The translations under genes and the position numbers were made by a program. From Corynebacterium felinum (GTDB lineage: Bacteria > Actinomycetota > Actinomycetes > Mycobacteriales > Mycobacteriaceae), in assembly GCF_030408755.1 (NCBI RefSeq), contig NZ_CP047209.1, positions 2,480,001 to 2,544,000 on the forward strand: 64,000 nt of DNA, read 5' to 3'. Below the pieces are notes generated by a model that saw only the letters and a program-made list of their open reading frames with translations, did not search any database and was not told where the DNA came from. This document shows positions 6,309-46,332 of the stretch, in pieces. Position 1 is the stretch's first letter. Each line of letters begins with the position of its first letter.

Positions 6309-6352
6309 TGGCCTATAAAGGTTTCACGCCCAAGGATTTCCTTGATCGCCTA

Positions 6353-27687: not shown

Positions 27688-27730
27688 ACACACAAGTGTA
27701 AAGGTTTTCCCAAGGAGAGCACCGACTCTC

Positions 27731-27736
27731 TATAGT
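27731..27736 (+). promoter_or_regulatory. -10-like box of the putative crRNA-like regulator
   Basis: TATAGT lies about 17-20 bases before the first degenerate repeat, so transcription would start at about 27743 and enter the repeat within ten bases. The -35 region is weak (TTTTCC or TTCCCA around 27705-27712). Confidence 0.45.
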
Positions 27737-27742
27737 TGAAGT

Positions 27743-27872
27743 GGGTCTCGAATTTTTCCGGCTAAGGCCGGAATGACCCGTTAGTAATGAAACGATTTAC
27801 GCATTCCCCGCACTAGCGGGGTTAAAACCTAGCCCCGAACGCATCACACGAGGGCTAGGTTTTCGTATTTTT
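27743..27872 (+). ncRNA. Degenerate mini-CRISPR (pseudo-repeat/pseudo-spacer/pseudo-repeat), putative CreR-type cas-regulating RNA
   Basis: Pseudo-repeat 1 (27753-27780) contains a 7-bp hairpin TTCCGGC-TAAG-GCCGGAA and ends in ATGACCCG, one mismatch from the array's crRNA 5' handle ATGATCCG. Pseudo-spacer (27781-27800) begins TTAGTAATGAA. Pseudo-repeat 2 (27801-27829) contains TTCCCC-GCACTA-GCGGGG, very close to the array repeat TTCCCCACGTAAGCGGGG. A 12-bp terminator stem follows directly. The first 11 nt of the pseudo-spacer occur on the minus strand at 30858-30848, inside the cas8e promoter region, with flank AAC in PAM position; overall 16 of 19 positions match. The unit sits between a promoter-like box and a terminator, separate from cas3. 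Inference: processed by Cas6e and loaded on Cascade, it represses cas8e. It could also be a relic of a lost array. Confidence 0.65.
27824..27872 (+). terminator. Terminator of the mini-CRISPR unit
   Basis: The stem AAAACCTAGCCC (27824-27835) pairs perfectly with GGGCTAGGTTTT (27852-27863) and is followed by CGTATTTTTG. Its 5' arm overlaps the end of pseudo-repeat 2. Confidence 0.75.
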
Positions 27873-27890
27873 GTTCGACGATACGGGCTC

Positions 27891-27929
27891 TTATGTTAGA
27901 TCTTTATGGAAAATTATAATCACCATAAA
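27891..27929 (+). promoter_or_regulatory. Putative cas3 promoter with an inverted repeat over the -10 box
   Basis: TATAAT at 27915-27920 is a consensus -10, with TTATGT at 27891-27896 as a possible -35. The -10 is enclosed by the inverted repeat TTTATGG (27903-27909) and CCATAAA (27923-27929), a possible operator. The cas3 ATG is about 26 bases further, with AGGAG in between. Confidence 0.5.
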
Positions 27930-27952
27930 ACCTCGAACATAGGAGTATCAAC

Positions 27953-30808
27953 ATGAGCCGTCTTGAGAGCTTACAACCGCCTCTTCCTACAGAAGTCCAT
28001 AAAGGAGCGTGGGCTAAATTCGATTTCCAAACTGACGAATGCCTTTCGCTAACCCGCCACCTTGATGATGCCGCATGCACCGCTTCATTCTTGTGGGATA
28101 CTTGGGTTCCACCCCACACCAAACTGCTCATTGCTAGGGAACTAAACGGAAATCAGCACTTAGCTAAAAAAGTTGTCGTCTTTCTCGCTGCAGGGCATGA
28201 CATTGGTAAGCATTCCAGCGCTTTCGCCGCAAAAGTCCCCTCACTCAAACAACACATGGAACGCCATGGTGCATCATTTGTGAACTTTAATAAGCATGAA
28301 GCCCAGTCAATGCCACATGGCGTAGTGAGCGCGGCCAGTTTTCGCGAATGGATAGCAAACCGTGGCATCCCTTTGAATAAGAACCTTTCTGATGAAATTG
28401 CCGCCATTGTAGGAGGTCATCACGGCGTTTTTCCCCCACTTGCTCAAGTCGTACAAAATCCCGCACTCAAAAGGGACAGCCGCAGTCACTGGGGAAAAGA
28501 CCGTTTCCACTATTGGGATCGAGCAGCATTGACAGCTCAGCTGAGCCATGATGATTACCTAGCTCTAAGTCAATGCGCTTTCTCAGCTCCTGTTCAAATG
28601 ATCTTGTGCGGAATCCTCATCATGGCTGATTGGATTTCTTCCAATCGCGAGCTGTTTCCTTTAACAGACGATCGAGATAGCAACCTTCGCGCAGAATTAG
28701 CTTTTGAATCGCTCAAATTTCATGAGCACTGGAACCCTCAAGAAATCACCGATCTACTCAGCCTTTTTGCTTCAAGTTTCACGTTGCCCGATGAAGCGAA
28801 ACCTCGACCTGTCCAAACTACCGCGATGGAAATTGCCCACACGGCAGATGAGCCTTGCCTACTGCTTATTGAAGCCCCAACTGGCGAAGGAAAAACCGAA
28901 GCCGCCTTGGCTGCGGCAGAAATTCTTGCCTCGCGATTCTCCCTTTCAGGAGTCACTATTGCACTTCCCACCTGTGCAACCTCAGATGCGATGCTTCCGC
29001 GTATGCTCGCGTGGCTTTCTCGTAGGCTTCCTGCCAATTCTCATGCCGATACTGTGCTTAGTCACGGAAAAGCACAGTTTAATGAGCACTACCAGTCTCT
29101 GTTTAAACCATTTAAGAATGGCTATTCCGCTATCTACGATTCCGAGACAAGCACTAACGTCACCTTTAGACCCAATTCTTGGTTTACCGGTAGAAAAACC
29201 TCAACACTCGCTGATTTCACACTAGGCACAATTGACCAGGTACTCTTTGCAGCCTTACGCTCCAAGCACTTGGTTCTTCGTCACCTCGGTTTCGCAAACA
29301 AGGTGATCATTCTTGATGAGGTTCATGCCGCGGATGCATACATGACTGTGTATCTCGAAAGGTGCTTAACGTGGTTTGGCGCATTGGGGGTACCAGTTGT
29401 CGCGCTCTCTGCCACGCTCCCCCCTCAACGTCGCGCAGGACTATTGCAGGCTTATCGTCGAGGTGCACTTTCTAGTAAAAGTATCAAGTACGATGACGAA
29501 CAACATGCTTCGGACTGCGCCATGTGGTCTGCGGAATCCGGTTATCCTCTCATTAGTTGTGTCACAGCCACTACCTCGGAACTAAAAGTTCTAGCACCCA
29601 GTGGTCGGACGCAAAACTTCTTAATTGAGTATCTTGGCTTTGAGACAGAACTGCTTGCCCATAGAATCGCAGACGAAGCGCGCTTTGGCGGATGCATCGG
29701 CGTTGTGTGCAGCACAGTAGATCGCGCTCAATCCATATACAAGGATTTGCTCACTCTTCTCGATGACGATACCGAATTAGTACTGCTTCACTCACGTTTC
29801 TTGGGATTCGAGCGACGAAGAATTGAAAAAGGGCTGGTTGAACGTCTAGGGCGCAATAGTTCAAAGCGTCCACACAAGCTGGTCGTAGTGTCCACTCAGA
29901 TCATTGAACAGTCAATGGATATCGACTTCGATCTAATTTTCAGTGATATTGCGCCTATTGATCTCATTTTCCAACGAGCCGGACGCCTGCACCGCCATGA
30001 GCGTCCTAACAATGAGAGACCTGCACGTCATCAGTCCGCGAGACTCATCATCGCAGGTTGTAGCGAGCCAACAACTGACGCTACCCCACGCATCGACAAT
30101 GGAAGCGCTGCCGTCTACGGCAAGTCGATACTCCTCCGCACGCTAAGTACCTTATTGACACACGGCAAACATGTGCAATCTCCTACAGACGTTTCACCAC
30201 TTGTTCGAGCTACCTATGACCCCCAACACGAGTTTTTCCGTACGTGGACAACAGACGGTTTAGCAGCAGATGAAGAAGCTGAGAAAATACGCAAAGACCA
30301 GTGTGAACGCGCAAATGACTACCTTCTACCGGAACCAGATTCACGGCCTGTATGGAGTAAAAGAAAAGGTGGAACACTCGAAGCCCGCGAAGAAACACGC
30401 GGGCGAGCTCAGGTCCGCGACATTGAAGATAGCTTGGAAGTAATCCTCGTTCGCAAAAATGGCACCACCTTCGAGGTTCTCCCTTGTTCCCCCAAACGTG
30501 CAGGTGAGGAAATCCATTTTGCTCATGGCATTGACGATGAACTGGCGAAAACCCTAGCTCAAAGTACGGTTTCACTCCCCAGCTGGGTTCTCAGAGGAAA
30601 ACAAGGCAATCAGCTCTTTGACTCACTTGAAGAAGATGTCTTCACTGCGGACGAAGTTGCAGCTCTCTCACGTAATAAGTGGCTTCGGGGACAGCTATTT
30701 ATCCCCCTTGACCTCAACAATTGCGCAAATGTCGCTGGCTTGACGATTGTTTACCGCCAAGAAACAGGACTGCATGTTAGCAAGAATGCTAGCCCCGAAA
30801 TTGGGTAA
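27953..30808 (+). CDS. cas3: CRISPR-associated helicase-nuclease Cas3
   Basis: This 951-residue protein is recruited by Cascade to the displaced strand of a target and degrades it. The N-terminal HD nuclease has GHDIGKH near residue 79, with further conserved His residues in SMPHGVV and GGHHGVF. The SF2 helicase has Walker A GEGKT near 306, the DEVH box near 455, SATLPP, and the C-terminal IFQRAGRLHRHE near 672. The start is the ATG at 27953, with AGGAG upstream. It has its own promoter and is separated from cas8e by 92 bases with another promoter, so Cas3 and Cascade can be controlled separately. Confidence 0.97.
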   Translation: MSRLESLQPPLPTEVHKGAWAKFDFQTDECLSLTRHLDDAACTASFLWDTWVPPHTKLLIARELNGNQHLAKKVVVFLAAGHDIGKHSSAFAAKVPSLKQHMERHGASFVNFNKHEAQSMPHGVVSAASFREWIANRGIPLNKNLSDEIAAIVGGHHGVFPPLAQVVQNPALKRDSRSHWGKDRFHYWDRAALTAQLSHDDYLALSQCAFSAPVQMILCGILIMADWISSNRELFPLTDDRDSNLRAELAFESLKFHEHWNPQEITDLLSLFASSFTLPDEAKPRPVQTTAMEIAHTADEPCLLLIEAPTGEGKTEAALAAAEILASRFSLSGVTIALPTCATSDAMLPRMLAWLSRRLPANSHADTVLSHGKAQFNEHYQSLFKPFKNGYSAIYDSETSTNVTFRPNSWFTGRKTSTLADFTLGTIDQVLFAALRSKHLVLRHLGFANKVIILDEVHAADAYMTVYLERCLTWFGALGVPVVALSATLPPQRRAGLLQAYRRGALSSKSIKYDDEQHASDCAMWSAESGYPLISCVTATTSELKVLAPSGRTQNFLIEYLGFETELLAHRIADEARFGGCIGVVCSTVDRAQSIYKDLLTLLDDDTELVLLHSRFLGFERRRIEKGLVERLGRNSSKRPHKLVVVSTQIIEQSMDIDFDLIFSDIAPIDLIFQRAGRLHRHERPNNERPARHQSARLIIAGCSEPTTDATPRIDNGSAAVYGKSILLRTLSTLLTHGKHVQSPTDVSPLVRATYDPQHEFFRTWTTDGLAADEEAEKIRKDQCERANDYLLPEPDSRPVWSKRKGGTLEAREETRGRAQVRDIEDSLEVILVRKNGTTFEVLPCSPKRAGEEIHFAHGIDDELAKTLAQSTVSLPSWVLRGKQGNQLFDSLEEDVFTADEVAALSRNKWLRGQLFIPLDLNNCANVAGLTIVYRQETGLHVSKNASPEIG

Positions 30809-30900
30809 TTGAAAATTCTTGCCGTCAAGCCCTTGTATATTAAGCGATTCATTACTAAGTTAATATTTGTAAGTTTGAAAATGTATGGAAGGAGGTACCA
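30809..30900 (+). promoter_or_regulatory. cas8e (Cascade operon) promoter containing a match to the pseudo-spacer
   Basis: In this 92-base gap a -10-like TAATAT lies at 30861-30866. Directly before it, 30848-30858 is the exact reverse complement of the first 11 nt of the pseudo-spacer at 27781. GTT at 30859-30861 reads AAC in the PAM position. A strong AGGAGG at 30890-30895 is the ribosome site for the GTG start at 30901. Cascade bound here would cover the core promoter. Confidence 0.6.
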
Positions 30901-32550
30901 GTGATTACCCAATTCAATCTCATCGAAGAGAAATGGATCCCCGTATTAAAACCAACCAACATGGTTGAGCTAGTCAGCATTCGAGAGTTTTTCCAACAGA
31001 GCCACACTATCGTTGACTTTGGATGCGAGCTTGCCTCTATGCGCTTTGCAATCTTCCGAATCATGTTCGCAATCCTTCGTCGGAGTCTCGATGCCAAAAT
31101 GCACAGCGATCCTGAAGGTTACTGGACTGAACTCTGGGAGGCCGATGAGCTTCCTCTCGATTTAATCGAGAAGTATTTAACGCAAGTACACGATCGCTTC
31201 GATCTACTCCACCCCCAAAAACCCTTTCTGCAAACCCCAGGACTTCACGTTAAATCTGGCGAGTGGAAAGAACTGGGTATTCTCGTCGCTGACAGCCCCG
31301 GTGAAGGCGCCCTTTTTACGCAAACCGTTCATACTTCGGAGATCACCTTCGACAGTGCCGCTCGATGGCTTATTCATGCCAACGCGTTTGATTACTCCGG
31401 TATCAAATCTGGCGCAGTCGGTGATCCGCGTGTGAAAGGCGGTAAGGGATACCCGATGGGCATTGGGTGGGCTGGTTGGATGGGGTGCACCATCATTACC
31501 GGTGCGAACATGAAAGAAACATTGCTTCTTAATCACGCCTTACAAGAAGACGTCGATCTATCCAAGGATTTACCAATCTGGGAAGAAGAGCCACTTTCAT
31601 CCGTGCCACGCCCAAACGCCCAACCTTATGGACAACTATCTTTGATCACTTGGCCACAAAGGAGAATACTCCTACACAGTAGCGGAACAGGAATTGATGG
31701 CGTTCTTATCTGCAACGGGGATCCCGTGGACTATCTATCCCAGTTGCTCCATGAAACGATGACACCATGGCGCTTTTCAGAGCCACAGTCGAAAAAAGCC
31801 AAAAAACCTGTATTCATGCCCAAGACTCTTGAGCCAGGAGATTCACTCTGGCGTGGCTTTAGCTCCTTCATGCCACAATTTGCGACTGGCAAAGAGATCC
31901 TCAACTCCTATAGCTCCTACGACTCGAAGGACGATATTCCATCATTCGAACCGCCAGAGACTGTTACTCAAATTGCTAATCGAATCGGAAATCCTTTACC
32001 TGAAGATTTCAGTTTACGCATCGATGTAACCAGCGTTGTTTACGGAAGCCAGAGTGCTTCATTCGAAGAGATTCTTCATGACAAACTGGTTTTCCCTGCA
32101 CTTTTGCTTGCGGTGGAAGGGGCAGATCTTCGTGATCTGGTTGAAACAGCAGTGAAACGAAGCATGGAAGCTACAGAAGTGTTGGCCAATTTTGCAGCGA
32201 ATATTTGCCGTGCTGAAACCGACAGTAAAGACGCTCCGGCCCATGCTAGGGATCGAGCCAAAGCAGAGGCTTTCAGCCTGCTCGATGCGGAATTCCCTCA
32301 GTGGTTAAGCCGTTTACCTATTTCAAAAGATTCCGCTGAAGAAGAATTGCAAAAGTGGACCGACTACGTAAGGTCACTTTTCTCATCGGAAGGTAATCGT
32401 CTCGTGCAAGAAGCCTCCCCTAGCGCATGGCATGGTCGCAAGCGTGATGATGTGATTTTCACAGTTGGCCAGGCTGAGGCTTGGTTCAAATCAAATCTCT
32501 ATAAGGCACTTCCTCCCCAAGAAAAAAGAAAGGAGAAGACTGATGACTAG
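30901..32550 (+). CDS. cas8e: Cascade large subunit Cas8e (Cse1/CasA)
   Basis: This is the 549-residue large subunit of the type I-E complex. It reads the PAM, starts DNA unwinding and recruits Cas3. The N-terminus (FNLIEEKWIPVL) and the segment HPQKPFLQTPGL are typical of Cse1. A C-terminal four-helix bundle is suggested by the helical tail. The start is GTG at 30901, seven bases or less behind AGGAGG. The stop overlaps the start of cse2 by eight bases. Confidence 0.95.
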   Translation: MITQFNLIEEKWIPVLKPTNMVELVSIREFFQQSHTIVDFGCELASMRFAIFRIMFAILRRSLDAKMHSDPEGYWTELWEADELPLDLIEKYLTQVHDRFDLLHPQKPFLQTPGLHVKSGEWKELGILVADSPGEGALFTQTVHTSEITFDSAARWLIHANAFDYSGIKSGAVGDPRVKGGKGYPMGIGWAGWMGCTIITGANMKETLLLNHALQEDVDLSKDLPIWEEEPLSSVPRPNAQPYGQLSLITWPQRRILLHSSGTGIDGVLICNGDPVDYLSQLLHETMTPWRFSEPQSKKAKKPVFMPKTLEPGDSLWRGFSSFMPQFATGKEILNSYSSYDSKDDIPSFEPPETVTQIANRIGNPLPEDFSLRIDVTSVVYGSQSASFEEILHDKLVFPALLLAVEGADLRDLVETAVKRSMEATEVLANFAANICRAETDSKDAPAHARDRAKAEAFSLLDAEFPQWLSRLPISKDSAEEELQKWTDYVRSLFSSEGNRLVQEASPSAWHGRKRDDVIFTVGQAEAWFKSNLYKALPPQEKRKEKTDD

Positions 32551-33124
32551 TAAGAGCAAGCAACTCTCAGAATTCATCTATCGGACGATCGAGCAATATC
32601 AGCAACACTATCTTCAGGGAGCTCCCCATGCGAAAGCTGATCTTGCTAATTTCCGCCGTTTAGCAAACAAACAACTTGGCGATTCTCCCGAAACCTGGGC
32701 AGTATTCTCTCATGGATTCCCTCCCCAGCTCATCGGCAACGGTTTCCAGCCCTCACCTGCTGAAACTGCCGCGTTCATTTCATTGACCTTGTTTGCGAGT
32801 CATATTCAATCGAAACATGAACCCATGCACCTGAAAAACGAAGGACTGGGCGATGCTCTGCGGAAATATGCAGTGAAGACAAACACCGATCTTTTTGAGT
32901 CTTCATTATTTAAGCGCTTTAATTCCGTAATCCACTCCCCCAACATGGAGGGAATTGCCTACCACCTGCGTTCGCTTGTCCAGTTGTTCCGCAGCGAAAG
33001 TATTCCACTGGATTACGGAAAACTTGCAACCGATTTGTATCGCATGCAGTTTCCTGACAGCCGCACTTCCACCCAATTGAGCTGGGCACGCCAGCTTTAC
33101 CGTACTCAAACCATTGAATCCTAG
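32543..33124 (+). CDS. cse2: Cascade small subunit Cse2 (Cas11e/CasB)
   Basis: This is a 193-residue helical protein that stabilises the non-target strand in Cascade. FRRLANKQLGDSPETWAVF and the C-terminal ATDLYRMQFPDSRTSTQLSWARQLY fit the Cse2 family. I use the ATG at 32543, eight bases inside the end of cas8e and behind AAAGGAG; the longer frame from 32465 lies wholly within cas8e. Confidence 0.95.
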   Translation: MTSKSKQLSEFIYRTIEQYQQHYLQGAPHAKADLANFRRLANKQLGDSPETWAVFSHGFPPQLIGNGFQPSPAETAAFISLTLFASHIQSKHEPMHLKNEGLGDALRKYAVKTNTDLFESSLFKRFNSVIHSPNMEGIAYHLRSLVQLFRSESIPLDYGKLATDLYRMQFPDSRTSTQLSWARQLYRTQTIES

Positions 33125-33139
33125 AAAGGGGTTACCACC

Positions 33140-34276
33140 ATGTCCACACTGTTCATCGATTTCCACGCAATCCAAGCCATTGGCCCTGCAAATATCAACC
33201 GTGACGATTCTGGTTCACCAAAATCCACAGTTTTCGGCGGGGTGCGTCGTACTCGGGTCTCGTCGCAGGCATGGAAGCGCGCAATTCGCAAGAAGTTTGA
33301 AGAGGTAATTGACTACGACAAGCTCGGGGAACGCACAGTGCATGCGGTAGATCGCATCGCTGCGAAAATTGTTGAAAAACAACCCGATCTTCAAAACGAG
33401 GCTGAGAAGCTCGCTCAAGCAGTTCTCAAAGCTGGAGGAATCAATACGAGCGTCGCCAAAAAGAATAAAGCTGACAAGGAAGCCGGCGCCCCCGACAAAT
33501 TGGTAACAGGATATCTCCTCTTTCTCTCTCGGGCGCAGATTGAATCCCTTGCCAACCTTGCGATCTCAGCCCACCTGGAAGCTGACGGAAAGTTTGATAA
33601 GAAGGCTGTGAAAGCTGCTATCAATGACCATCACTCAATCGATGTCGCACTATTTGGCCGCATGATTGCTGACTCATCTGATTTGAATGCAGATGCTTGT
33701 TGCCAAGTTGCTCATGCAGTGAGTGTTCATCCCATGGAGTCTGAATATGACTACTTCACAGCTGTTGACGACAATGCGCCTGAAGGAAATGCTGGCGCAG
33801 GCATGATTGGAACGGTAGAGTTCAATTCATCCACCTTGTACCGGTACGCAACTATCAATGTTCCTGCATTGATCAATTCCTTGGGCTCTGTTGAAGCTGC
33901 AGCTTCAGCGGTAGGTACTTTCGCGCAGGCATTTGCTATAACGATGCCAACCGGAAAGCAAAATACGTTTGCAAATCGTACTCGGCCAGAGTTTTTCGCA
34001 GTTTCTTTGCGTTACGATCAACCAGTTAACCTGGTTGATGTTTTCGAAGATGCGATCACGGTTAAATCTGGCCGTATGAAGGAAGCAACCACGCGGCTTG
34101 TTCAACACGCTTTATCCTCTGACGAAGCCTATGGTGTGCAGGCTACTTCATACTATCTTGCTACTGGTGGAGCTGCTCTCGCTAGTTCATTGGAGGATTT
34201 TGGTGAATCGCATACCTTGCCAGAAATTGTGTCTCTTACTGAATCTGCAGTCCGGGCTTTCGCTGAGGAGAACTAG
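33140..34276 (+). CDS. cas7e: Cascade backbone subunit Cas7e (Cse4/CasC)
   Basis: This 378-residue RRM-fold protein polymerises along the crRNA to form the Cascade backbone. The N-terminal FIDFHAIQAIGPANINRDD and the segment GGVRRTRVSSQAWKRAIR are hallmark Cas7e sequence. The central MESEYDYFTAVDD and the fold-back segment TMPTGKQNTFANRT are also typical. AAAGGGG precedes the ATG. Confidence 0.96.
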   Translation: MSTLFIDFHAIQAIGPANINRDDSGSPKSTVFGGVRRTRVSSQAWKRAIRKKFEEVIDYDKLGERTVHAVDRIAAKIVEKQPDLQNEAEKLAQAVLKAGGINTSVAKKNKADKEAGAPDKLVTGYLLFLSRAQIESLANLAISAHLEADGKFDKKAVKAAINDHHSIDVALFGRMIADSSDLNADACCQVAHAVSVHPMESEYDYFTAVDDNAPEGNAGAGMIGTVEFNSSTLYRYATINVPALINSLGSVEAAASAVGTFAQAFAITMPTGKQNTFANRTRPEFFAVSLRYDQPVNLVDVFEDAITVKSGRMKEATTRLVQHALSSDEAYGVQATSYYLATGGAALASSLEDFGESHTLPEIVSLTESAVRAFAEEN

Positions 34277-34278
34277 CT

Positions 34279-34980
34279 GTGGCTGTCTTACTCCTTCAAC
34301 TTGCAGGACCTCTGCAAGCGTGGGGTGATTCCTCACGGTTCTCACATCGCATGACGCGTCGCGAACCAACTAAAAGCGGCATTCTTGGCCTGCTGGCGGC
34401 TGCACAGGGGCGTTCTCGCGATGCAGATCTTTCCGATCTTGTGAAGTTACGCTTTGGCGTACGCATTGATCAAGCTGGTCGACTAGTGCGGGATTTCCAA
34501 ACTGAAATTGACTGGCGCACTGGGAAGTCTAAACAACTGACATATCGCCACTATCTTGCGGATGCCAAATTTCTTGCAGCAGTCGAGGGCGAACGAGAGT
34601 TCTTGAACATTCTGGCAGAAAATCTACGATCTCCTGTTTTTCCCTTGTTCTTGGGACGCCGTTCATGTCCTCCCACTGGGAAACTGGTGCTCGGGCTGAA
34701 GGAGGAATCGTTAGACAATGTCCTAGATTCCCACCCTTGGCTCGCATCGGAATGGTACCGGAAGCAACAACCTAAAAACCTACAGTTAGCAATTTCTCGG
34801 GATTGCCTGCCTGGTGAGCTTCCTGATGAGATGATTCGTGATATTCCAGTTCGTTTTAGCTACCGCGAGCGATCCCATGAATTACGGGCTGTTCGGCATC
34901 GCTTTTCTCCGACTATCGAAAATGAAAATGGTCGCAACACTAACGAACATGATCCGTTCACCCTTATCGGAGGTGCCTGA
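34279..34980 (+). CDS. cas5e: Cascade subunit Cas5e (CasD)
   Basis: This 233-residue RAMP protein caps the crRNA 5' handle. LLLQLAGPLQAWG and SRFSHRMTRREPTKSGILGLL are the Cas5e signature, and LGRRSCPPTGK is the conserved Gly-rich segment. It starts with GTG two bases after the cas7e stop, and its TGA overlaps the ATG of cas6e by one base. Confidence 0.96.
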   Translation: MAVLLLQLAGPLQAWGDSSRFSHRMTRREPTKSGILGLLAAAQGRSRDADLSDLVKLRFGVRIDQAGRLVRDFQTEIDWRTGKSKQLTYRHYLADAKFLAAVEGEREFLNILAENLRSPVFPLFLGRRSCPPTGKLVLGLKEESLDNVLDSHPWLASEWYRKQQPKNLQLAISRDCLPGELPDEMIRDIPVRFSYRERSHELRAVRHRFSPTIENENGRNTNEHDPFTLIGGA

Positions 34981-35636
34981 TGGTTTATCTGAGTCGTATG
35001 GGTCTCAATGCTAGGCGACGAGAAACTGCTAAATTTCTCACGAATCCGCGAGCGATGCATGCTGCTGTTGAAGCTTGTTTCCCTCCCCACTATGACGATA
35101 AAAACCCTCGCTCATTATGGCGTTTGGAGCGTGTGAACAACTCGGTGACCTTATGGTTAGTGAGCGATCGCTGCCCATCCTTCGAGCATCTACAAGAACA
35201 AGGAGGTTGGTCACAGGAGGTTACTTGGGAGACGCGAAATTATGATCAGTTACTTGATCGTCTTCAGCGTGGGCAAAGGTACTCGTTTCGTTTAACTGCG
35301 AATCCTGTGAAAGATACTCTTTGTGAGGATGGTAAGAAACGTCGAGTTCCACTATTTCGTGAAGAAGATCAGGTTAATTGGTTGTTAACTCGATCTGCAA
35401 AGAATGGATTTTCCGCATCGAATGATGAAGGGGCTCCAACTTTTGCAATTACTGAGTCTCGCCAAGTACGTTTCCGGCATGACAATAGTACTGTCACTCT
35501 TCAGAAGTGCACTTTTGAAGGTGTGCTTTCAGTCTCAGACCCCCAACTTTTACGTAATGCTCTCGTCTCCGGAATCGGCAAGGGCAAGGCTTATGGGTTG
35601 GGCATGATCACTCTTGCCCCTTATTCAGGTGGGTAA
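34980..35636 (+). CDS. cas6e: crRNA endoribonuclease Cas6e (CasE/Cse3)
   Basis: This 218-residue nuclease cuts the pre-crRNA below each repeat hairpin, leaving the 8-nt 5' handle. The catalytic His is in PRAMHAAVE (about residue 26-27), and the C-terminal Gly-rich loop SGIGKGKAYGLGM binds the repeat stem. If the mini-CRISPR RNA at 27.75 kb is real, this is the enzyme expected to process it. Confidence 0.96.
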   Translation: MVYLSRMGLNARRRETAKFLTNPRAMHAAVEACFPPHYDDKNPRSLWRLERVNNSVTLWLVSDRCPSFEHLQEQGGWSQEVTWETRNYDQLLDRLQRGQRYSFRLTANPVKDTLCEDGKKRRVPLFREEDQVNWLLTRSAKNGFSASNDEGAPTFAITESRQVRFRHDNSTVTLQKCTFEGVLSVSDPQLLRNALVSGIGKGKAYGLGMITLAPYSGG

Positions 35637-35649
35637 AGATATCCCTGGA

Positions 35650-36603: not shown

Positions 36604-36947
36604 TCACGATAGTTTTAACTGCATGTCCTGAATCTCTCAGAGGCCATCTCACACGTTGGTTGAGCGAAATTTCAACTGGTGTTTTTGTAGGCAAAGTCAA
36701 TCCTAGAATCCGGGAAAAATTGTGGTCTTTGGTGGTGGCCGAATGTAAGACAGGTCGCGCGATTATGACTTTTACTTCACGTGACCTTGAGCAGGGTTAT
36801 AGCTTCCAGGTTCACAATCATGATTGGGAGGTAATAGATATCGAAGGGTTGCACCTTGTTAGGCGTCAATCTCGCACTTACGCCAATAAATCGAAGAAAC
36901 CGAAGAAAGGCTGGTCTAATGCTGGGCGGCGCCGCCGCTTCGGTTAA
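36600..36947 (+). CDS. cas2e: CRISPR adaptation protein Cas2e
   Basis: This 115-residue structural partner of Cas1 has TACPESLRGHLTRWLSEISTGVFVG as the type I-E Cas2 signature and a basic tail (KSKKPKKGW) instead of an extra domain. Its ATG overlaps the cas1 stop. The CRISPR leader begins directly after its stop. Confidence 0.95.
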   Translation: MITIVLTACPESLRGHLTRWLSEISTGVFVGKVNPRIREKLWSLVVAECKTGRAIMTFTSRDLEQGYSFQVHNHDWEVIDIEGLHLVRRQSRTYANKSKKPKKGWSNAGRRRRFG

Positions 36948-37003: not shown

Positions 37004-40000
37004 AAGTTCCCCACGTAAGCGGGGATGATCCGAGAACCGCGGCACCTGGCTAGACCCAGACAAAAAGTTCCCCACGTAAGCGGGGATGATCCGCGGTCGC
37101 CCTCGACTGGGCGGAAGCGTCCGGAAAGTTCCCCACGTAAGCGGGGATGATCCTGGTGATCGAGCCACGGCGGGCGGTCACAGTGCAAGTTCCCCACGTA
37201 AGCGGGGATGATCCGGGGCGCCCAATGATCCGCCCATCTACCGCCGGAAGTTCCCCACGTAAGCGGGGATGATCCGGCCACCGGACAATCCACAACCGAA
37301 GTACACAAAAGTTCCCCACGTAAGCGGGGATGATCCTGAACTCCGATAGTGTCAATCGCATCAGTGATAAAGTTCCCCACGTAAGCGGGGATGATCCGTC
37401 TGCGGGTCCGGCTCCTAGTTTGTGCCATTTAAGTTCCCCACGTAAGCGGGGATGATCCTTTTACCTCCTTCTATTTTGTCGCTGATGGCTAAAGTTCCCC
37501 ACGTAAGCGGGGATGATCCGACCCCGCCCGCGTAGCGGGTCATTAATAGGCCAAGTTCCCCACGTAAGCGGGGATGATCCTATAGGGGAGGTTTCTATAG
37601 CAGATCGAAGCTCAAGTTCCCCACGTAAGCGGGGATGATCCATTCTCGCTGATGCCAAACAGGCAAAAAACGAGAAGTTCCCCACGTAAGCGGGGATGAT
37701 CCGTTTAATAATGGACATAAGTCCAGTTATAGATAAAGTTCCCCACGTAAGCGGGGATGATCCGAGCTGCATCAGCCGCAGAAGTAGCCGGCAAACAAGT
37801 TCCCCACGTAAGCGGGGATGATCCGGGTGTGTACGCAGTCTCCAATATCACCACCCCAAGTTCCCCACGTAAGCGGGGATGATCCGGGCAGGTACCCCAA
37901 TTTGAGCTACGCGACCTAAAGTTCCCCACGTAAGCGGGGATGATCCGGGCAGGTACCCCAATTTGAGCTACGCGACCTAAAGTTCCCCACGTAAGCGGGG
38001 ATGATCCGGTTTACCGCGTCGAAGAACTGGAAGAACGGCGAAGTTCCCCACGTAAGCGGGGATGATCCGGGTGTGTACGCAGTCTCCAATATCACCACCC
38101 CAAGTTCCCCACGTAAGCGGGGATGATCCGCGTGGGTTTGATTTTACGTTTATGCCAACCCCAAGTTCCCCACGTAAGCGGGGATGATCCTATGTATCCC
38201 AGATATTTTGCAATGTAGAGTTTAAGTTCCCCACGTAAGCGGGGATGATCCGGCATCGCCCTGAATGAGCTCACCGGAGGGGTCAAGTTCCCCACGTAAG
38301 CGGGGATGATCCGGAGTCTATTCTAGTGCAAAAAATCGTACCCGCAAGTTCCCCACGTAAGCGGGGATGATCCTGAGTGCGTGTCAGTCGAGGTAGTTAA
38401 AGCAGCAAGTTCCCCACGTAAGCGGGGATGATCCGGGCAGGTACCCCAATTTGAGCTACGCCATAGGAAGTTCCCCACGTAAGCGGGGATGATCCGGCGG
38501 GCGGTCAGTAGTACCGCCCCTAGTAGCTAAGTTCCCCACGTAAGCGGGGATGATCCGTTCCCGTGCCCCGTCGATCCGAACAAGGTGGTAAGTTCCCCAC
38601 GTAAGCGGGGATGATCCGATTCGGCTCAATTCCGACGACGTAAACGTAGGAAGTTCCCCACGTAAGCGGGGATGATCCGGTGTTAAGCTGGCTACTGATG
38701 CGTGGAAAATCAAGTTCCCCACGTAAGCGGGGATGATCCGGGCAGGTACCCCAATTTGAGCTACGCCATAGGAAGTTCCCCACGTAAGCGGGGATGATCC
38801 GATTTACTATCGTGGTGCGTGACAAGCCTGTTTAAGTTCCCCACGTAAGCGGGGATGATCCTAGCTGCGGTGATCGAGGGCGCGGGCGGTACAGAAGTTC
38901 CCCACGTAAGCGGGGATGATCCGGCAGTGCTCGGTGAGGCGTTGCTACCCGTGGTAAGTTCCCCACGTAAGCGGGGATGATCCGCGCACCCGTCGTACCT
39001 GCGACTGCGGCCATAAAAGTTCCCCACGTAAGCGGGGATGATCCGCCCGGCCAGTTGTGGCCCTGCATGGCTTTTTCAAGTTCCCCACGTAAGCGGGGAT
39101 GATCCGCAGTTTGCGCACGAGTGACCTTAACCGCCCACAAGTTCCCCACGTAAGCGGGGATGATCCGCGCCTTCCGCTTCTCCGGAGACGACGGCCACGA
39201 AGTTCCCCACGTAAGCGGGGATGATCCGGAACCGCCGCCCACGAACTAGCCGAACACAAAAAGTTCCCCACGTAAGCGGGGATGATCCGTAGCCATAGTC
39301 ATAGCCCCTTAATGGTTTCTAAAGTTCCCCACGTAAGCGGGGATGATCCGCCCCGCGCCCTGCCCTTTTTTTCCCTCCCCTTAAGTTCCCCACGTAAGCG
39401 GGGATGATCCGGCTTGACGGGTCACCAGATTCATAAGACTTATAAGTTCCCCACGTAAGCGGGGATGATCCGTTCTGCATCAGTGGCGATAACCCATTTC
39501 AGGCAAGTTCCCCACGTAAGCGGGGATGATCCGGTTTACCGCGTCGAAGAACTGGAAGAACGGCGAAGTTCCCCACGTAAGCGGGGATGATCCGACCAAG
39601 GTGCCGCGTTCGCCAATCTTGCCCAAAAGTTCCCCACGTAAGCGGGGATGATCCGTGTTGGAAGCGCTTCGCATGGTGCCTAAGGATAAGTTCCCCACGT
39701 AAGCGGGGATGATCCGGTACTTTGAAAAAAGAATCTGTCGATCTGCTTAAGTTCCCCACGTAAGCGGGGATGATCCGCAGCGCGGGAATGGATACGAAAA
39801 CTTGACGTAAAGTTCCCCACGTAAGCGGGGATGATCCGCGAAGAACACTTCTTTAAATTCGGCGGTGGTGAAGTTCCCCACGTAAGCGGGGATGATCCGA
39901 ACGGTAAACTCGCTCAGGTTACATTCTGGGAAAGTTCCCCACGTAAGCGGGGATGATCCGCGCCCGAGCAGCCAGGCGCGAAGTTAAGTGAGAAGTTCCC

Positions 40001-43000
40001 CACGTAAGCGGGGATGATCCGTTTACCCACATGCATATGCGCAGGTCAAGTTAAAGTTCCCCACGTAAGCGGGGATGATCCGGTATGCGCTAATCGCGCC
40101 ACGACGTTGTAGGCAAGTTCCCCACGTAAGCGGGGATGATCCTCGTGAGCATACCCGAGCATAGGAGACTATCAAAAGTTCCCCACGTAAGCGGGGATGA
40201 TCCGAACCTTCACGGCCAAGGTGCGGAAAACAGATTAAGTTCCCCACGTAAGCGGGGATGATCCGGTGAGTGTTAGATTCCCTTCATAACCTTGAACAAG
40301 TTCCCCACGTAAGCGGGGATGATCCCAGCTCAACGCATCACTAATCGAGCTTGGTGAGAAGTTCCCCACGTAAGCGGGGATGATCCGGCTTGCTTACGGC
40401 AGGTGCATTCAAATTCGAGAAGTTCCCCACGTAAGCGGGGATGATCCTTTCTTTCCATCTGCAAAACCAGATTTGCGCCAAAGTTCCCCACGTAAGCGGG
40501 GATGATCCGGCGCACCATGATGCCTGGCATAATGTCACGGTAAGTTCCCCACGTAAGCGGGGATGATCCGTCAGGGCGCGAAGCTTCTTTTTAGAGAGCA
40601 GTAAGTTCCCCACGTAAGCGGGGATGATCCGGCATCGGGTCACTACCAACTGCGGAGAAAACCAAGTTCCCCACGTAAGCGGGGATGATCCGGATTGGAG
40701 CAATTTCACCAGTGCAGATGCAGCAAGTTCCCCACGTAAGCGGGGATGATCCGAACAATCTCGCATCGACGTTTGACTTCCAACAAAGTTCCCCACGTAA
40801 GCGGGGATGATCCTCGTTGGCTTTATCTTTGGGGGTTTATGCCTAAAAGTTCCCCACGTAAGCGGGGATGATCCGCCCACAAGATCAGCACTGAAATGCT
40901 GGCGTAAAAGTTCCCCACGTAAGCGGGGATGATCCGTTGGTTGGTGTTGGCGCTGACTTGGCGGCGACAAGTTCCCCACGTAAGCGGGGATGATCCTGGC
41001 AGAGGTTGACAGCCTAGATGACTTGCACGAAGTTCCCCACGTAAGCGGGGATGATCCGGCCGGAACGCCGCTTGAACATGAAACCCCTCGAAGTTCCCCA
41101 CGTAAGCGGGGATGATCCGCGCCAATCGACGCTGCAAGCCCATGACGCTTTAAGTTCCCCACGTAAGCGGGGATGATCCGTTTGGCTTAGACCCCGATAG
41201 GTACGTTATAGAAAGTTCCCCACGTAAGCGGGGATGATCCGCAGCCGTGAGGAATGGCTAGAACAGCGACGCGAAGTTCCCCACGTAAGCGGGGATGATC
41301 CGCAGGAAAAACAAAACCACATACGCGGCAATCTAAGTTCCCCACGTAAGCGGGGATGATCCGGGCACCTTAAGGGCAACCGCCCCTATACTTACAAGTT
41401 CCCCACGTAAGCGGGGATGATCCGCTGCAAATCCTAGACATGGCAGTTGAAATCGCAAGTTCCCCACGTAAGCGGGGATGATCCTCGAACACCCAGGCGG
41501 AAACGCCTCCGCAAGAAAAGTTCCCCACGTAAGCGGGGATGATCCGTGTGGGATTTAGGCAAGCCTGAAGGCAAGGGGAAGTTCCCCACGTAAGCGGGGA
41601 TGATCCGTCGTCGAAGTCGTGGCAGTAGGTGAAGGTGAGAAGTTCCCCACGTAAGCGGGGATGATCCTGGGCAGCCCCGCGCGTGCAGACGTTGTTAACT
41701 AAGTTCCCCACGTAAGCGGGGATGATCCTAAACCGGTCGTAGGCCAGACCAGTCTTACCCAAAGTTCCCCACGTAAGCGGGGATGATCCCTGCCCATCCG
41801 GCTGCAAAGCAATAACCACAGGAAGTTCCCCACGTAAGCGGGGATGATCCTGTCACTGTGACGATTTATATGCCGGAGCGGGCAAGTTCCCCACGTAAGC
41901 GGGGATGATCCGTTATTTTCGAGAAGCTTTCCACTGCTGCTGCGAAGTTCCCCACGTAAGCGGGGATGATCCGCTCACCCAGCGTATGGTCAAGGACATT
42001 AACTAAAGTTCCCCACGTAAGCGGGGATGATCCGGCGATGTGCTGGTAGACCGCGAGGTCGGTTTGAAGTTCCCCACGTAAGCGGGGATGATCCGAAACA
42101 TATCCTCGACTATTTTGGACATGTATTAAGTTCCCCACGTAAGCGGGGATGATCCGGCTTCTACTCGGTCGCCCTTCCTGAGATTGACAAGTTCCCCACG
42201 TAAGCGGGGATGATCCGGTGCAATTCACCGACTTTCGCCCAGTAACGAAAAGTTCCCCACGTAAGCGGGGATGATCCGTGTATCCGTGGGAGCATGCCCG
42301 ATTCGAAGAAAAGTTCCCCACGTAAGCGGGGATGATCCTCCCCACTAAACATTGTTTAGTGGGGTTACCCCAAGTTCCCCACGTAAGCGGGGATGATCCG
42401 CGGTGAAGTCGGCTGCTGCGCAAGTTGCGGCAAAGTTCCCCACGTAAGCGGGGATGATCCCTCATCAGGGTTAGCAACCAACCCGTTTTTGTGAAGTTCC
42501 CCACGTAAGCGGGGATGATCCGTTCGAGTTATGCACGACGGCTACGTAATGATCAAGTTCCCCACGTAAGCGGGGATGATCCTCCGATGCCGATGAGGAC
42601 GTTGATTATGATGGTAAGTTCCCCACGTAAGCGGGGATGATCCTTTCCTCGCTGACGCGGTAGAAACCTATATCGGAAGTTCCCCACGTAAGCGGGGATG
42701 ATCCGGCTTATTGGGGGCACGCACCGACACATGAACGAAGTTCCCCACGTAAGCGGGGATGATCCCCCCGAGTATTCATCAAAAGACTGGGCGGGCGGAA
42801 GTTCCCCACGTAAGCGGGGATGATCCGAAATCAGCATGATCCAGCGCAGTGAGAAGGGTAAGTTCCCCACGTAAGCGGGGATGATCCGGCCGGTGCTGGC
42901 GCTGCGGGCGGCTTTGGATTAAGTTCCCCACGTAAGCGGGGATGATCCCACCACAGCATCGAGAGCCACTATCCGCAGCGAAAGTTCCCCACGTAAGCGG

Positions 43001-44430
43001 GGATGATCCTTTGGGGCCGTGGAGCGACTGAAACCCCCCGCAAGTTCCCCACGTAAGCGGGGATGATCCGCTTATCCTTCACCCCACACTTCACACACCA
43101 TAAAGTTCCCCACGTAAGCGGGGATGATCCGCACGCGAAAGACTTCGCCGAGATCAAAGCACGAAGTTCCCCACGTAAGCGGGGATGATCCGGCGAAGTT
43201 GTCTAAGGCGGAGCGGAATGATCTAAGTTCCCCACGTAAGCGGGGATGATCCGAAGCACCGTCGTGCTTGACACAGTGACCTACTAAGTTCCCCACGTAA
43301 GCGGGGATGATCCGGTTCTCGCCTTACCCCCATACCCCGAGTTCAAAAGTTCCCCACGTAAGCGGGGATGATCCGTGATCCAATGGGTAAGGGACTTTTT
43401 ACCGCTAAAGTTCCCCACGTAAGCGGGGATGATCCGGCGCTTGTGAAGATCACGGGGATTTAATCATGAAGTTCCCCACGTAAGCGGGGATGATCCAGTA
43501 AGACCGCTTCGGAATTAGCTTTAATGCTGAAGTTCCCCACGTAAGCGGGGATGATCCGGAACCGTCGACCGTTCTTTACCGCGTCCTCGAAAGTTCCCCA
43601 CGTAAGCGGGGATGATCCGACCAATACCCGCGCCGACCACGTAAATGATCTAAGTTCCCCACGTAAGCGGGGATGATCCGCGCTGCTCCTGTCGGGACAG
43701 ATCGCCCCAGTGAAGTTCCCCACGTAAGCGGGGATGATCCGTTTTCCATCCAAGGAAACCATGTCAGGGGTTGAAGTTCCCCACGTAAGCGGGGATGATC
43801 CGACCAGCTGCTCGAACTGCTGGTGCGGAATATTAAGTTCCCCACGTAAGCGGGGATGATCCGCTCGAATCAGGCGCGCAAAAAGCAGCCGCCGGAAGTT
43901 CCCCACGTAAGCGGGGATGATCCGGTCAACACCCCGGGGGCATGGATAGCCGCCCGAAGTTCCCCACGTAAGCGGGGATGATCCGGAGATTGCCCCTATG
44001 CCTAAACCCAACTCCCCAAGTTCCCCACGTAAGCGGGGATGATCCGCCTACGGGGAGTCTGATACGCGGTGCTCGATGAAGTTCCCCACGTAAGCGGGGA
44101 TGATCCTCTTCGCGCCACATTCAAATGTGATCGCACCACAAGTTCCCCACGTAAGCGGGGATGATCCAGACAACGCAGCCAAACGACGCAGCACGGTCAC
44201 AAGTTCCCCACGTAAGCGGGGATGATCCGAAATGGCTCCCGGAACCAATGGCAACAACCAAAAGTTCCCCACGTAAGCGGGGATGATCCGGTTCTCGCCT
44301 TACCCCCATACCCCGAGTTCAAAAGTTCCCCACGTAAGCGGGGATGATCCGTGATCCAATGGGTAAGGGACTTTTTACCGCTAAAGTTCCCCACGTAAGC
44401 GGGGATGATCCGGCTGTGATGGAGGGTGCC

Positions 44431-44455
44431 CGCAAGGTCGACCCAAGTTCCCCAC
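44431..44455 (+). repeat. Left copy of the 25-bp direct repeat flanking the insertion
   Basis: CGCAAGGTCGACCCAAG plus TTCCCCAC is made of the end of one spacer and the first 11 bases of the next repeat. It recurs exactly at 44983-45007 on the other side of the insertion, as expected for a target-site duplication. Confidence 0.85.
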
Positions 44456-44982
44456 CGGACTTGTGACATTTTAGTCAGGTTTCGAGATTCTATTGAGCAA
44501 TCTGGTGATTTCTGGCGGTAGTGGTGTCTCGATAGATCCCTTCCAGTAGCAGCATCCAAACCTAGATGAACAAACGCAGACCGGATCGCATCTAACAAAT
44601 CCCCAGCTTTTTGCCCTATCACAGGCACAGGATCATCCACCCCACCTGTGCCCCCACTAGCAACACCAAAATCCAGTGTTAACTGATCACCATCAATCAA
44701 ACGCTGAGCCTGGCTTTTCAACAACGCAAGCTCTTCAGGCGTATGCGCAGAACCAATATGATCCAACACCGGCTTGTTATCAACATACCGCCACAGAACC
44801 TGCACCGCTGAAGCCCCAGAAGCAGTCGGAACAATACGAATCCTCGGCAGTGACATACTCAACAGTTTACGACTACCCCCACAACTACCCGATTAGTCAG
44901 GAATTTCACCCCACCCCACAACCAAACACCAAGGCCACAGTGTCAATATGAAATACAACACACCAAAATGTCACAAGTCAGG
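44456..44982 (-). mobile_element. 527-bp internally deleted IS1634-family-like element
   Basis: It is bounded by imperfect inverted ends sharing the core GACTTGTGACATTTT and flanked by a 25-bp direct duplication. It carries only an N-terminal transposase fragment on the minus strand (MSMSLPRIRIVPTASGASAV, DHIGSAHTPEELALL), which is typical of the IS1634/IS1549 group, joined to a short C-terminal-like tail. The core of the transposase is missing, so the element can move only in trans. IS1634-type elements are known for long target duplications of variable length, which fits the 25 bp. Confidence 0.8.
44459..44862 (-). pseudogene. Truncated IS1634-type transposase
   Basis: About 105 recognisable N-terminal residues remain, then the frame runs through the left inverted end into CRISPR repeats. 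No DDE catalytic residues are present. Confidence 0.75.
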
Positions 44983-46332
44983 CGCAAGGTCGACCCAAGT
45001 TCCCCACGTAAGCGGGGATGATCCGTGGTGAACGGTTTTTTAAAACCAGCCCGCCGGAAGTTCCCCACGTAAGCGGGGATGATCCGGGCTGGAACATGAA
45101 ACTCACCGATAGCGTGGCAAGTTCCCCACGTAAGCGGGGATGATCCCACCGTAGCGCTCGATCGGGTCAGCCTCACCACAAGTTCCCCACGTAAGCGGGG
45201 ATGATCCGGATCACATATTATGAGTCTCCAGCCAACGCCCAAGTTCCCCACGTAAGCGGGGATGATCCGGTGACGCCGATACAACCGACGAACCTATTTC
45301 TAAGTTCCCCACGTAAGCGGGGATGATCCGGTGCCAACCATGCCCATCAGGGCACCGGTACAAAGTTCCCCACGTAAGCGGGGATGATCCGCCTTAGCCA
45401 TGCGCTCACGACGCCCCTTTGTGAAGTTCCCCACGTAAGCGGGGATGATCCGGCTTCGGGGCGTCTATTCCGCGTTGTGAGTGTAAGTTCCCCACGTAAG
45501 CGGGGATGATCCGTGTTATTGGGTACCGGCCCCTCACCGAATTTCAAGTTCCCCACGTAAGCGGGGATGATCCGAAATAGCGAGGTATCCTGCAGCTATT
45601 TCGTAAAAGTTCCCCACGTAAGCGGGGATGATCCGTCGCGCCCGACGTGCCAGAGTGAAAAACCGTAAAGTTTCCCACGTAAGCGGGGATGATCCGTCTC
45701 GTTGGGTAATGTCATTGACTGGTTTCCCAAGTTCCCCACGTAAGCGGGGATGATCCGTTGTCTGCTGCTTCCTTGATCCAGTCGATCAAAAGTTCCCCAC
45801 GTAAGCGGGGATGATCCGTATCCAGCTGATTCTGCTGCTGTTAACGCATTAAGTTCCCCACGTAAGCGGGGATGATCCAGGGGATCGAAGTCAAAGAGCA
45901 TGGGGCACCTGTAAGTTCCCCACGTAAGCGGGGATGATCCTGTCCTCCATGATTGGTTTGGTGATGCACCAGAAAGTTCCCCACGTAAGCGGGGATGATC
46001 CGGGTTCTACGTAATTCACGGAGTCCGTCGACGTAAGTTCCCCACGTAAGCGGGGATGATCCGGTTGCCTACCTTTGGGCATGTGACACAGGTTGAAGTT
46101 CCCCACGTAAGCGGGGATGATCCGGTTGAGGAGTTGCATGTGGAGTATTCGGGTAAAAGTTCCCCACGTAAGCGGGGATGATCCGCTCTAGACGTTCCAC
46201 TTTCCACACGTCATCACAAGTTCCCCACGTAAGCGGGGATGATCCGCTGTGGCAGTTTGGGTCACGTGCGTTGGTGGCAAGTTCCCCACATAAGCGGGGA
46301 TGGGTTGGTGATTCAACGACACAAGGCGCATT

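What the first reader, a model, noticed from the sequence alone, without database searches (positions are those of the whole stretch)
27743..30866. Degenerate mini-CRISPR upstream of cas3 whose pseudo-spacer seed matches the cas8e promoter: CreR-like autoregulation of a type I-E system
Seen: two repeat-like hairpins (27753-27780, ending ATGACCCG; 27801-27829, TTCCCC-GCACTA-GCGGGG) enclose a 20-nt pseudo-spacer. The unit has its own TATAGT box and terminator. The pseudo-spacer start TTAGTAATGAA is an exact 11-nt match to the minus strand at 30858-30848. After one mismatch CG also matches; 16 of 19 positions match in all. The match begins at base 1 of the pseudo-spacer, exactly where a crRNA seed lies, and the DNA flank AAC is in PAM position. 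The site abuts TAATAT in the only promoter region of the Cascade operon. With equal base use, an 11-mer match on either strand in about 90 bases is expected about 4 times in 100,000. Known: crRNA-like RNAs with partial spacer matches repress cas or toxin promoters through Cascade without cleavage (CreA, CreR). A corynebacterial I-E example with the RNA before cas3 and the target before cas8e is not something I know to be described.
Basis: partly seen in the sequence, partly recalled or inferred. Interest (0 to 1): 0.92.

Follow-up and report, generated by a model that had tools for sequence, protein, structure and literature searches.

The report
CRISPR system's own built-in dimmer RNA
Beside its CRISPR immune genes this bacterium carries a tiny, worn CRISPR-like unit whose short guide matches the switch of those same genes, and related species keep guide and switch matched while both change, so the immune system very probably turns itself down with it.

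Summary
A two-repeat degenerate mini-CRISPR (27752-27829) lies before cas3. Its 20-nt guide matches the minus strand of the cas3-cas8e gap, with AAC in PAM position; within positions 1-17 only 12 and 15 mismatch, and 12 is a Cascade flipped-out position. Seed plus AA-PAM occurs once in the 3.24-Mb genome, there. Of 87 I-E loci (window included), 66 carry such a unit with a matching cas-upstream site (41 non-redundant guides). Leave-one-out match is 0.94-1.00 at guide positions 1-5, 7-11 and 13, but 0.33 and 0.23 at 6 and 12, and background from 17. Where neighbours differ at paired positions, both still match in 105 of 133 cases, against 3 of 51 at 6 and 12. This is strong evolutionary evidence for CreR-type, Cascade-guided control of cas genes; expression and repression are inferred. 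CreR is already in print for type I-E, so this is a new member of a known kind. Possibly new: guides are 20±1 nt (45 of 66) or 31-32 nt (21 of 66), nothing between, and sites favour AAC although this array's protospacers mostly have AAG.

The parts
27707..27736 (+). Predicted promoter of the mini-CRISPR: TTCCCA (27707-27712), 18 nt, TATAGT (27731-27736)
   Evidence: Consensus scan, 9 of 12; the scan found no more such sites than shuffles give, so weak evidence by itself
27752..27780 (+). Degenerate repeat 1 (psi-R1): hairpin TTCCGGC/GCCGGAA and 5' handle ATGACCCG at 27773-27780
   Evidence: Read against array repeat AAGTTCCCCACGTAAGCGGGGATGATCC(G); hairpin in RNA fold
27781..27800 (+). 20-nt guide (pseudo-spacer) TTAGTAATGAAACGATTTAC
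   Evidence: 14 of 15 scored positions match the cas8e promoter site with AAC PAM; 0 of 5000 shuffles with AA PAM; seed plus AA-PAM unique in genome; length 20 by loop-centre measure
27801..27829 (+). Degenerate repeat 2 (psi-R2), hairpin CCCCGC-ACTA-GCGGGG: predicted Cas6e substrate and 3' end of the guide RNA
27824..27872 (+). Intrinsic terminator: stem AAAACCTAGCCC / GGGCTAGGTTTT, then T-rich tail
   Evidence: Sequence and fold
27953..30808 (+). cas3 (HD nuclease plus helicase)
   Evidence: cas3_HD and cas3_core above cut-off
30833..30861 (+). Predicted promoter of the Cascade operon: TTGTAT (30833-30838), 17 nt, TAAGTT (30856-30861)
   Evidence: Same arrangement in L034 (TTGCAA-18-TAAGTT) and L035 (TTGACA-17-TAAGTT) although the bases between differ; inferred, not in the consensus scan
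30839..30858 (-). Target site of the guide (protospacer, read on the minus strand from 30858)
30859..30861 (-). PAM AAC (minus strand); its complement GTT is the end of the TAAGTT box
30901..32550 (+). cas8e (cse1/casA), first gene of the Cascade operon; cse2, cas7, cas5, cas6, cas1, cas2 follow to 36947
   Evidence: Open frames, NCBIfam models above cut-off
37004..46306 (+). Canonical CRISPR array, 144 repeat copies, nearly all spacers 32 nt; last repeat degenerate

Best explanation
The unit is a CreR-type gene: a stand-alone degenerate mini-CRISPR making one crRNA-like RNA that guides the cell's own type I-E Cascade to the promoter of the Cascade operon and lowers its transcription. Steps: (1) transcription from the TATAGT promoter to the terminator [inferred from sequence]; (2) Cas6e cuts after the two hairpins, giving ATGACCCG + 20-nt guide + hairpin [inferred]; (3) the RNA loads Cascade, which with a 20-nt guide should hold fewer Cas7/Cas11 subunits than immune Cascade [inferred]; (4) Cascade reads AAC on the minus strand inside the -10 box and pairs through guide positions 1-5, 7-11 and 13(-17), opening the -35 to -10 interval [site, PAM and pairing pattern shown by comparative sequence; binding inferred]; (5) RNA polymerase is blocked, and Cas3 is not fired because pairing is short [inferred]. 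More Cascade gives more repression, and crRNAs that compete for Cascade, or anti-CRISPRs, would relieve it [as described for CreR; not tested].
For: Window: 14 of 15 scored positions, AAC PAM, 0 of 5000 shuffles with AA PAM; the seed plus AA-PAM occurs once in the genome. Comparative: 53 uncurated units, 47 of 53 significant with AA PAM against 2, 3 and 4 of 53 for reversed, complemented and reverse-complemented guides. Curated: 66 of 87 loci; best hit has an unrequested AA PAM in 65 of 66 against 80 of 1320 in other genomes. Footprint: match 0.94-1.00 at 1-5, 7-11 and 13, but 0.33 and 0.23 at 6 and 12, background from 17; similar when the site is picked by AA plus bases 1-5 alone (43 of 53 units). 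Co-variation: 105 of 133 changed paired positions matched in both neighbours, against 3 of 51 at 6/12. Haloarchaeal CreA needs 1-5 and 7-11 and not 6 or 12 (PMC8501985, passages).
Against: No RNA or expression data. 21 of 87 loci have no accepted unit/target pair (one of them, L058, gave an ambiguous hit of 13 of 14 that I did not accept); they include contigs cut short upstream (L082, L119) and L070, whose close relatives L074 and L077 have one. The window's cas8e promoter is below the consensus threshold. The CreR site has AAC although 7 of 9 protospacers found for this array have AAG, so binding at AAC by this Cascade is assumed. L049's best site has GTA, not AA. Units entered the curated set partly because they matched, which lifts the rates at the scored positions (positions 6 and 12 were not scored).
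Confidence: 0.9

Rival explanations
1. The unit is a CreA antitoxin of a CreTA addiction module: its real target is a toxin-RNA promoter and the cas match is secondary.
For: Same architecture of two degenerate repeats beside cas genes (PMC8501985, PMC9458426, passages).
Against: The only seed-plus-AA-PAM match in the genome is the cas8e promoter. In 66 loci the accepted target lies before cas3 (57) or cas8e (9), though only those regions were searched. Only about 80 bp lie between terminator and cas3.
Confidence: 0.04
2. A dying mini-array that once captured self DNA; the match is a relic without function.
For: Repeats are degenerate and the match is partial.
Against: A relic would not show co-change of guide and target at paired positions (105 of 133) with free drift at 6 and 12 (3 of 51), nor the near-constant PAM or two discrete guide lengths.
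Confidence: 0.02
3. The RNA acts as an ordinary antisense RNA on the cas8e leader, without Cascade.
For: In the window the guide is complementary to the plus strand across the promoter.
Against: In 56 of 66 loci the target is on the plus strand, so the guide has the same sense as the cas mRNA and cannot pair with it. Antisense pairing needs no PAM and would not spare positions 6 and 12.
Confidence: 0.02
4. Cascade bound at the site activates rather than represses, or gates Cas3/primed adaptation at its own locus.
For: Only binding is implied by the sequence footprint; the direction of the effect is inferred. In many minus-strand-unit loci the target lies 100-190 bp before the start of the cas3 match, not clearly on a promoter.
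Against: In the window, L034 and L035 the site covers the predicted -35 to -10 interval; pairing ends near position 16, short as in described repressing guides (PMC8501985).
Confidence: 0.05

Closest known systems
CreR, cas-regulating RNAs (Liu et al. 2023, Cell Host Microbe; doi 10.1016/j.chom.2023.08.005). Primary paper not held; known here from passages of reviews PMC13131331 and PMC12737573 and recall
   Same: crRNA-like RNA, partial complementarity to the cas promoter, autorepression; stated for types I-B, I-E and V-A
   Different: Here: a family across the window's genus, target before cas8e in some and before cas3 in others, two discrete guide lengths with 20 nt the commoner, AAC-biased sites. 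Whether the primary paper already shows any of these is unknown to me
CreA of CreTA modules (PMC8501985, PMC9458426: passages)
   Same: Degenerate repeats around one guide, PAM, pairing at 1-5 and 7-11, positions 6 and 12 irrelevant, promoter target
   Different: Target is the cas operon, not a toxin; type I-E not I-B; pairing conserved also at 13 and partly 14-16
Engineered short guides with native type I-B Cascade (Haloarcula, PMC10989794: abstract and passages)
   Same: Guide shortened by 12 nt (36 to 24) represses without interference or priming
   Different: Natural here, 32 to 20 nt; in Haloarcula a 20-bp spacer itself repressed clearly less than 21-24 bp
Cas9 autorepression in type II-A (seen only in the search listing of PMC11417352 and one sentence of PMC13131331; that it uses a natural short guide, tracr-L, is recalled)
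   Same: CRISPR effector represses its own promoter
   Different: Different effector and RNA

Membership tests
CreR (cas-regulating RNA) | Stand-alone mini-CRISPR (degenerate repeats, one guide) beside the cas operon | tested here: met
   Window 27752-27829; 66 of 87 loci
CreR (cas-regulating RNA) | Guide with limited, seed-centred complementarity to a cas promoter, with PAM | tested here: met
   AAC, 14 of 15 positions in the window; per-position footprint and controls; that the site is a working promoter is inferred
CreR (cas-regulating RNA) | Guide and target maintained together in evolution | tested here: met
   105 of 133 changed paired positions matched in both neighbours
CreR (cas-regulating RNA) | Transcribed and processed by Cas6, bound by Cascade | not testable with these tools
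   Promoter-like, hairpin and terminator features only
CreR (cas-regulating RNA) | Represses cas expression; relieved by crRNA competition or anti-CRISPR | not testable with these tools
   Needs expression data
CreTA (CreA antitoxin) | Guide targets the promoter of an adjacent toxin RNA (creT) | tested here: not met
   Single seed-plus-AA-PAM match in the genome is the cas8e promoter
Canonical type I-E CRISPR array | Two or more near-identical repeats with 32-nt spacers | tested here: not met
   Repeats differ from each other and from the array repeat; guide 20 nt

The most novel reading that the evidence does not exclude
The genus keeps a dedicated second kind of Cascade: CreR guides are quantised, most often at 20 nt (12 nt, i.e. 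two Cas7 steps, shorter than immune guides), so a physically smaller Cascade is built for gene control while 32-nt Cascade does immunity. Short guide, pairing that stops near position 16, and an AAC PAM (in the window not the PAM of most of its own array's protospacers) are three separate safeties that stop Cas3 from cutting the chromosome. Length switched between 20 and 32 at least five times on the Cas8e tree, so the two builds are interchangeable solutions.
Probability: 0.4. Interest if true: 0.78.

Novelty: new member of a known kind. Interest (0 to 1): 0.62.

Why it matters
The mechanism is known in outline, but here evolution itself supplies the experiment: 41 non-redundant guide/target pairs show, base by base, which positions the regulatory complex reads in living bacteria (1-5, 7-11, 13) and which it ignores (6, 12, and 17 on). 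That gives a sequence-only test for finding such regulators, shows that the arrangement is common in type I-E systems of this genus, and exposes a testable oddity: guides that come in two lengths two Cas7 steps apart. It also bears on anyone who expresses these systems or uses native Cascade for gene silencing, since removing the unit should raise Cascade levels.

Tried and rejected
Chance match: rejected. Rfam: one sub-threshold hit, DUF3577 RNA, 22.6 bits against a 42.6 cut-off, not believed. Protospacers: array part 37004-44900 gave no match in phage records and four plasmid records, of which one, a Corynebacterium mustelae plasmid, was followed. A simple repeat-alignment scan missed the window's own unit, whose first repeat has an indel, so hairpin plus handle detection was used, then a handle-only rescue and a hairpin-anchored rescue limited to guides of 19-21 and 31-33 nt, from which I accepted nothing; its one strong hit, in L058 (13 of 14, p=0.000), has ambiguous orientation and was left out. 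misread L047's guide as 48 nt (it took the terminator hairpin); read by eye it is 20. The second spacer of L035's mini-array gave no AA-PAM match in its locus among the hits printed. Rows dropped: G034 (weak match with a stop, not fetched); L014 (no cas3); L038, which passed the automatic rule (p=0.047) but was dropped by hand because its hairpins do not resemble the repeat; four rescue hits with p of 0.000-0.023 judged spurious for lack of repeat-like sequence (L053, L060, L080, L115). L049 was kept although its best site has GTA. In one search the array of L081 (and L085) was read in the wrong orientation; L081 counts among the 55.

Literature: eight searches listed no paper that I recognised as a corynebacterial CreR; absence from these listings is not absence from print.
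Full report
WHAT IS THERE. The window carries a complete type I-E system: cas3 (27953-30808), then cas8e, cse2, cas7, cas5, cas6, cas1, cas2 (30901-36947), each with an NCBIfam model above cut-off (frames), and an array of 144 repeat copies at 37004-46306, nearly all spacers 32 nt. The genome is 3.24 Mb in one contig.

Upstream of cas3 lies a two-repeat unit: hairpin, handle ATGACCCG, 20-nt guide 27781-27800, second hairpin with the 6-bp CCCCGC/GCGGGG stem, terminator. It folds with z = -4.84 against 200 shuffles. Its promoter (TTCCCA-18-TATAGT) is only a consensus match, of which the scan found no more than shuffles give (3 against a mean of 3.6).

THE MATCH. Guide bases 1-11, 13, 14, 16, 17 and 19 match the minus strand from 30858, with AAC in PAM position. 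Of the mismatches, 12 and 18 are positions that Cascade flips out and does not pair (6 and 12 shown for CreA in PMC8501985 passages; the general six-base rule is recalled). In 5000 dinucleotide shuffles of both cas promoter regions one reached the score and none did so with an AA PAM. The pattern AA-N-bases 1-5-N-bases 7-11 occurs once in the whole genome, at this site; the control pattern (read backwards) does not occur.

PROMOTER. In the window, L034 and L035 the site sits in the same frame: TTGTAT-17-TAAGTT, TTGCAA-18-TAAGTT, TTGACA-17-TAAGTT, with the PAM complement GTT closing the -10-like box. In the window PAM plus 20-nt guide run exactly from the base after the -35-like box to the end of the -10-like box. 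This promoter call is mine from comparison; the consensus scan does not list it.

RELATIVES. Cas8e was found in 89 of 242 genomes of the genus. I fetched 87 regions; G034 (weak, with a stop) was not fetched and L014 has no cas3, leaving the window plus 86 loci = 87, in which a cas3 match lies upstream of cas8e on the same strand (in L047 and L074 it is in two pieces more than 1 kb apart). Automatic detection (handle ATGNNCC, hairpin before and after, repeat not canonical) gave 53 loci with a unit. For each, the first 17 guide bases without 6 and 12 were scored against the own cas3-upstream and cas3-cas8e regions, with other loci under 70% Cas8e identity as null. Uncurated result: best hit has an AA PAM that was not asked for in 46 of 53, p of at most 0.05 without PAM in 40 of 53 and with AA PAM in 47 of 53. 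Controls (AA at best hit; p with AA PAM): reversed guides 3 and 2, complemented 3 and 3, reverse-complemented 5 and 4 of 53 (the PAM-free score is symmetric under reverse complement, 40 of 53, so only the PAM counts are a control there).

CURATION. From the 45 significant I dropped L038 by hand and added 22 loci from a handle-only rescue, chosen for score, p and hairpin context, leaving out four hits without repeat-like sequence. That makes 66 of 87; 21 have no accepted pair, including two cut contigs, L070, which lies among unit-bearing close kin, so some are misses of the method, and L058, where one search gave an ambiguous hit of 13 of 14 that I left out. Of the 66, 65 have an AA PAM at the best PAM-free hit (null 80 of 1320): AAC 53, AAT 8, AAG 3, AAA 1, GTA 1.

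FOOTPRINT. Leaving each position out when the site is picked (among AA-PAM sites), the match rate over 66 loci is 0.95-1.00 at 1-5, 0.33 at 6, 0.94-1.00 at 7-11, 0.23 at 12, 0.94 at 13, then 0.71, 0.55, 0.47, and about 0.25 from 17 on; in 41 non-redundant guides the picture is the same (0.93-1.00 at the paired positions, 0.32 and 0.20 at 6 and 12). Because inclusion itself used the match (not positions 6 and 12), I repeated it on the 53 uncurated units picking sites only by AA plus bases 1-5: 43 of 53 have such a site (5 of 53 for reversed guides), with 0.88-0.97 at 7-11, 0.47 at 6, 0.16 at 12, 0.93 at 13. This is the pairing pattern of a Cascade R-loop.

CO-VARIATION. In 43 nearest-neighbour pairs (same unit strand, guides alike at 6 or more of 11 positions), 133 paired positions (1-5, 7-11, 13) differ in guide or target; in 105 both members still match, in 28 at least one does not. 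At 6 and 12 the figures are 3 and 48. Pairs are not fully independent, and matching at paired positions helped a unit to be included. Example: window and L034 (61-62% Cas8e identity) differ at 5, 9 and 13, each time in guide and target alike.

ARCHITECTURES. Unit strand and target strand: minus/plus 50, plus/minus 10, plus/plus 6. The site lies upstream of cas3 in 57 and of cas8e in 9 (only these regions were searched). On a FastTree Cas8e tree the fewest changes are 5 for length class, 2 for orientation, 3 for target gene and 20 for presence, the last swollen by missed units (some long branches, so approximate). L068 and L069 (89% identical Cas8e) have a 19-nt and a 32-nt guide.

GUIDE LENGTH. 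Measured from loop centre, canonical = 32: 19-21 nt in 45 of 66 (L047 corrected by eye from 48), 31-32 nt in 21 of 66, nothing between. Among the 44 found automatically, where the rule allowed roughly 10 to 35 nt, it is 29 and 15. The difference is 12 nt, two Cas7 steps (6 nt each, recalled). In Haloarcula I-B, guides cut by 12 nt keep repression and lose interference and priming, though a 20-bp spacer repressed less than 21-24 bp (PMC10989794, abstract and passages). In I-F1, short guides bind but do not fire Cas2/3 (PMC7296934, abstract). [quoted passage not shown] 2016 says shortened-spacer E. coli Cascade can interfere and prime (title only, in a reference list). So in I-E the short pairing and the PAM may matter more than the length.

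PAM. Nine spacers of this array match the C. mustelae plasmid; the flank is AAG in 7, AGA and GAG in the others. Base 29 of the repeat unit, used as a stand-in for the acquired PAM base (as in E. coli, recalled), is G in 111 of 142 units. Yet the CreR site has AAC. Over 55 loci with at least ten spacers and an AA PAM, C at -1 is seen 45 times against 31.2 expected from base 29 (0 of 20000 simulations; non-redundant 26 of 34 against 19.0, P 0.005; one array, L081, was read in the wrong orientation). That AAC is a weaker, binding-only PAM is inference.

OUTSIDE THE GENUS. In 397 genomes of the order 58 match Cas8e, 54 of them outside the genus; loci of 20 of these 54 were read, and 4 of 20 (L133, L134, L135, L141) have a unit with an AAC site scoring 12-14 of 15 and p = 0 of 19; two further hits with p = 0 (L126, L143, score 11) lack repeat-like sequence and were not accepted. 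So the arrangement is not confined to the genus.

WHAT IS KNOWN. CreR autorepression in types I-B, I-E and V-A through partial promoter complementarity is in print (sentence in PMC13131331; passages in PMC12737573); the primary paper is not held. The C. striatum I-E paper PMC9944170 holds none of the words upstream, intergenic, PAM or degenerate in its main text. The finding is therefore a well-supported member of a known kind. I found no description of the discrete guide lengths or the AAC bias in the eight searches named under Tried and rejected, none of which was aimed at exactly these points except (guide length), and I keep them as the novel case.

Noticed in passing
window 37004-46306 against L120 (NZ_CP011544.1, C. 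mustelae plasmid phiCmus45274): Nine spacers of the array match this phage-like plasmid, seven with AAG in PAM position: a rich record of one phage lineage and a PAM estimate for this system.
   Followed up: partly
L035 oriented 3275-3392: Mini-array with a second, about 32-nt spacer between two near-identical repeats; no AA-PAM match for that spacer among the hits printed for its 18.5-kb locus.
   Followed up: partly
L068 and L069 (oriented loci): Close relatives (89% Cas8e identity) whose regulatory guides are 19 and 32 nt long: a natural recent length switch.
   Followed up: no
L133, L134, L135, L141: Units of the same kind in other genera of the order, target AAC.
   Followed up: partly
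window 37004-46306: 142 spacers counted, 136 distinct: six are repeats of others in the array.
   Followed up: no
L047 oriented 2071-6275; L074 oriented 2321-6323: cas3 matches in two pieces more than 1 kb apart, as if an insertion interrupts cas3, while the regulatory unit and its site remain.
   Followed up: no
arrays of L034-L118: Base 29 of the repeat unit is mostly G in the window, L034-L036 and a few others (L069, L074, L077) but mostly C in many other loci, suggesting shifts of acquisition PAM within the genus.
   Followed up: partly
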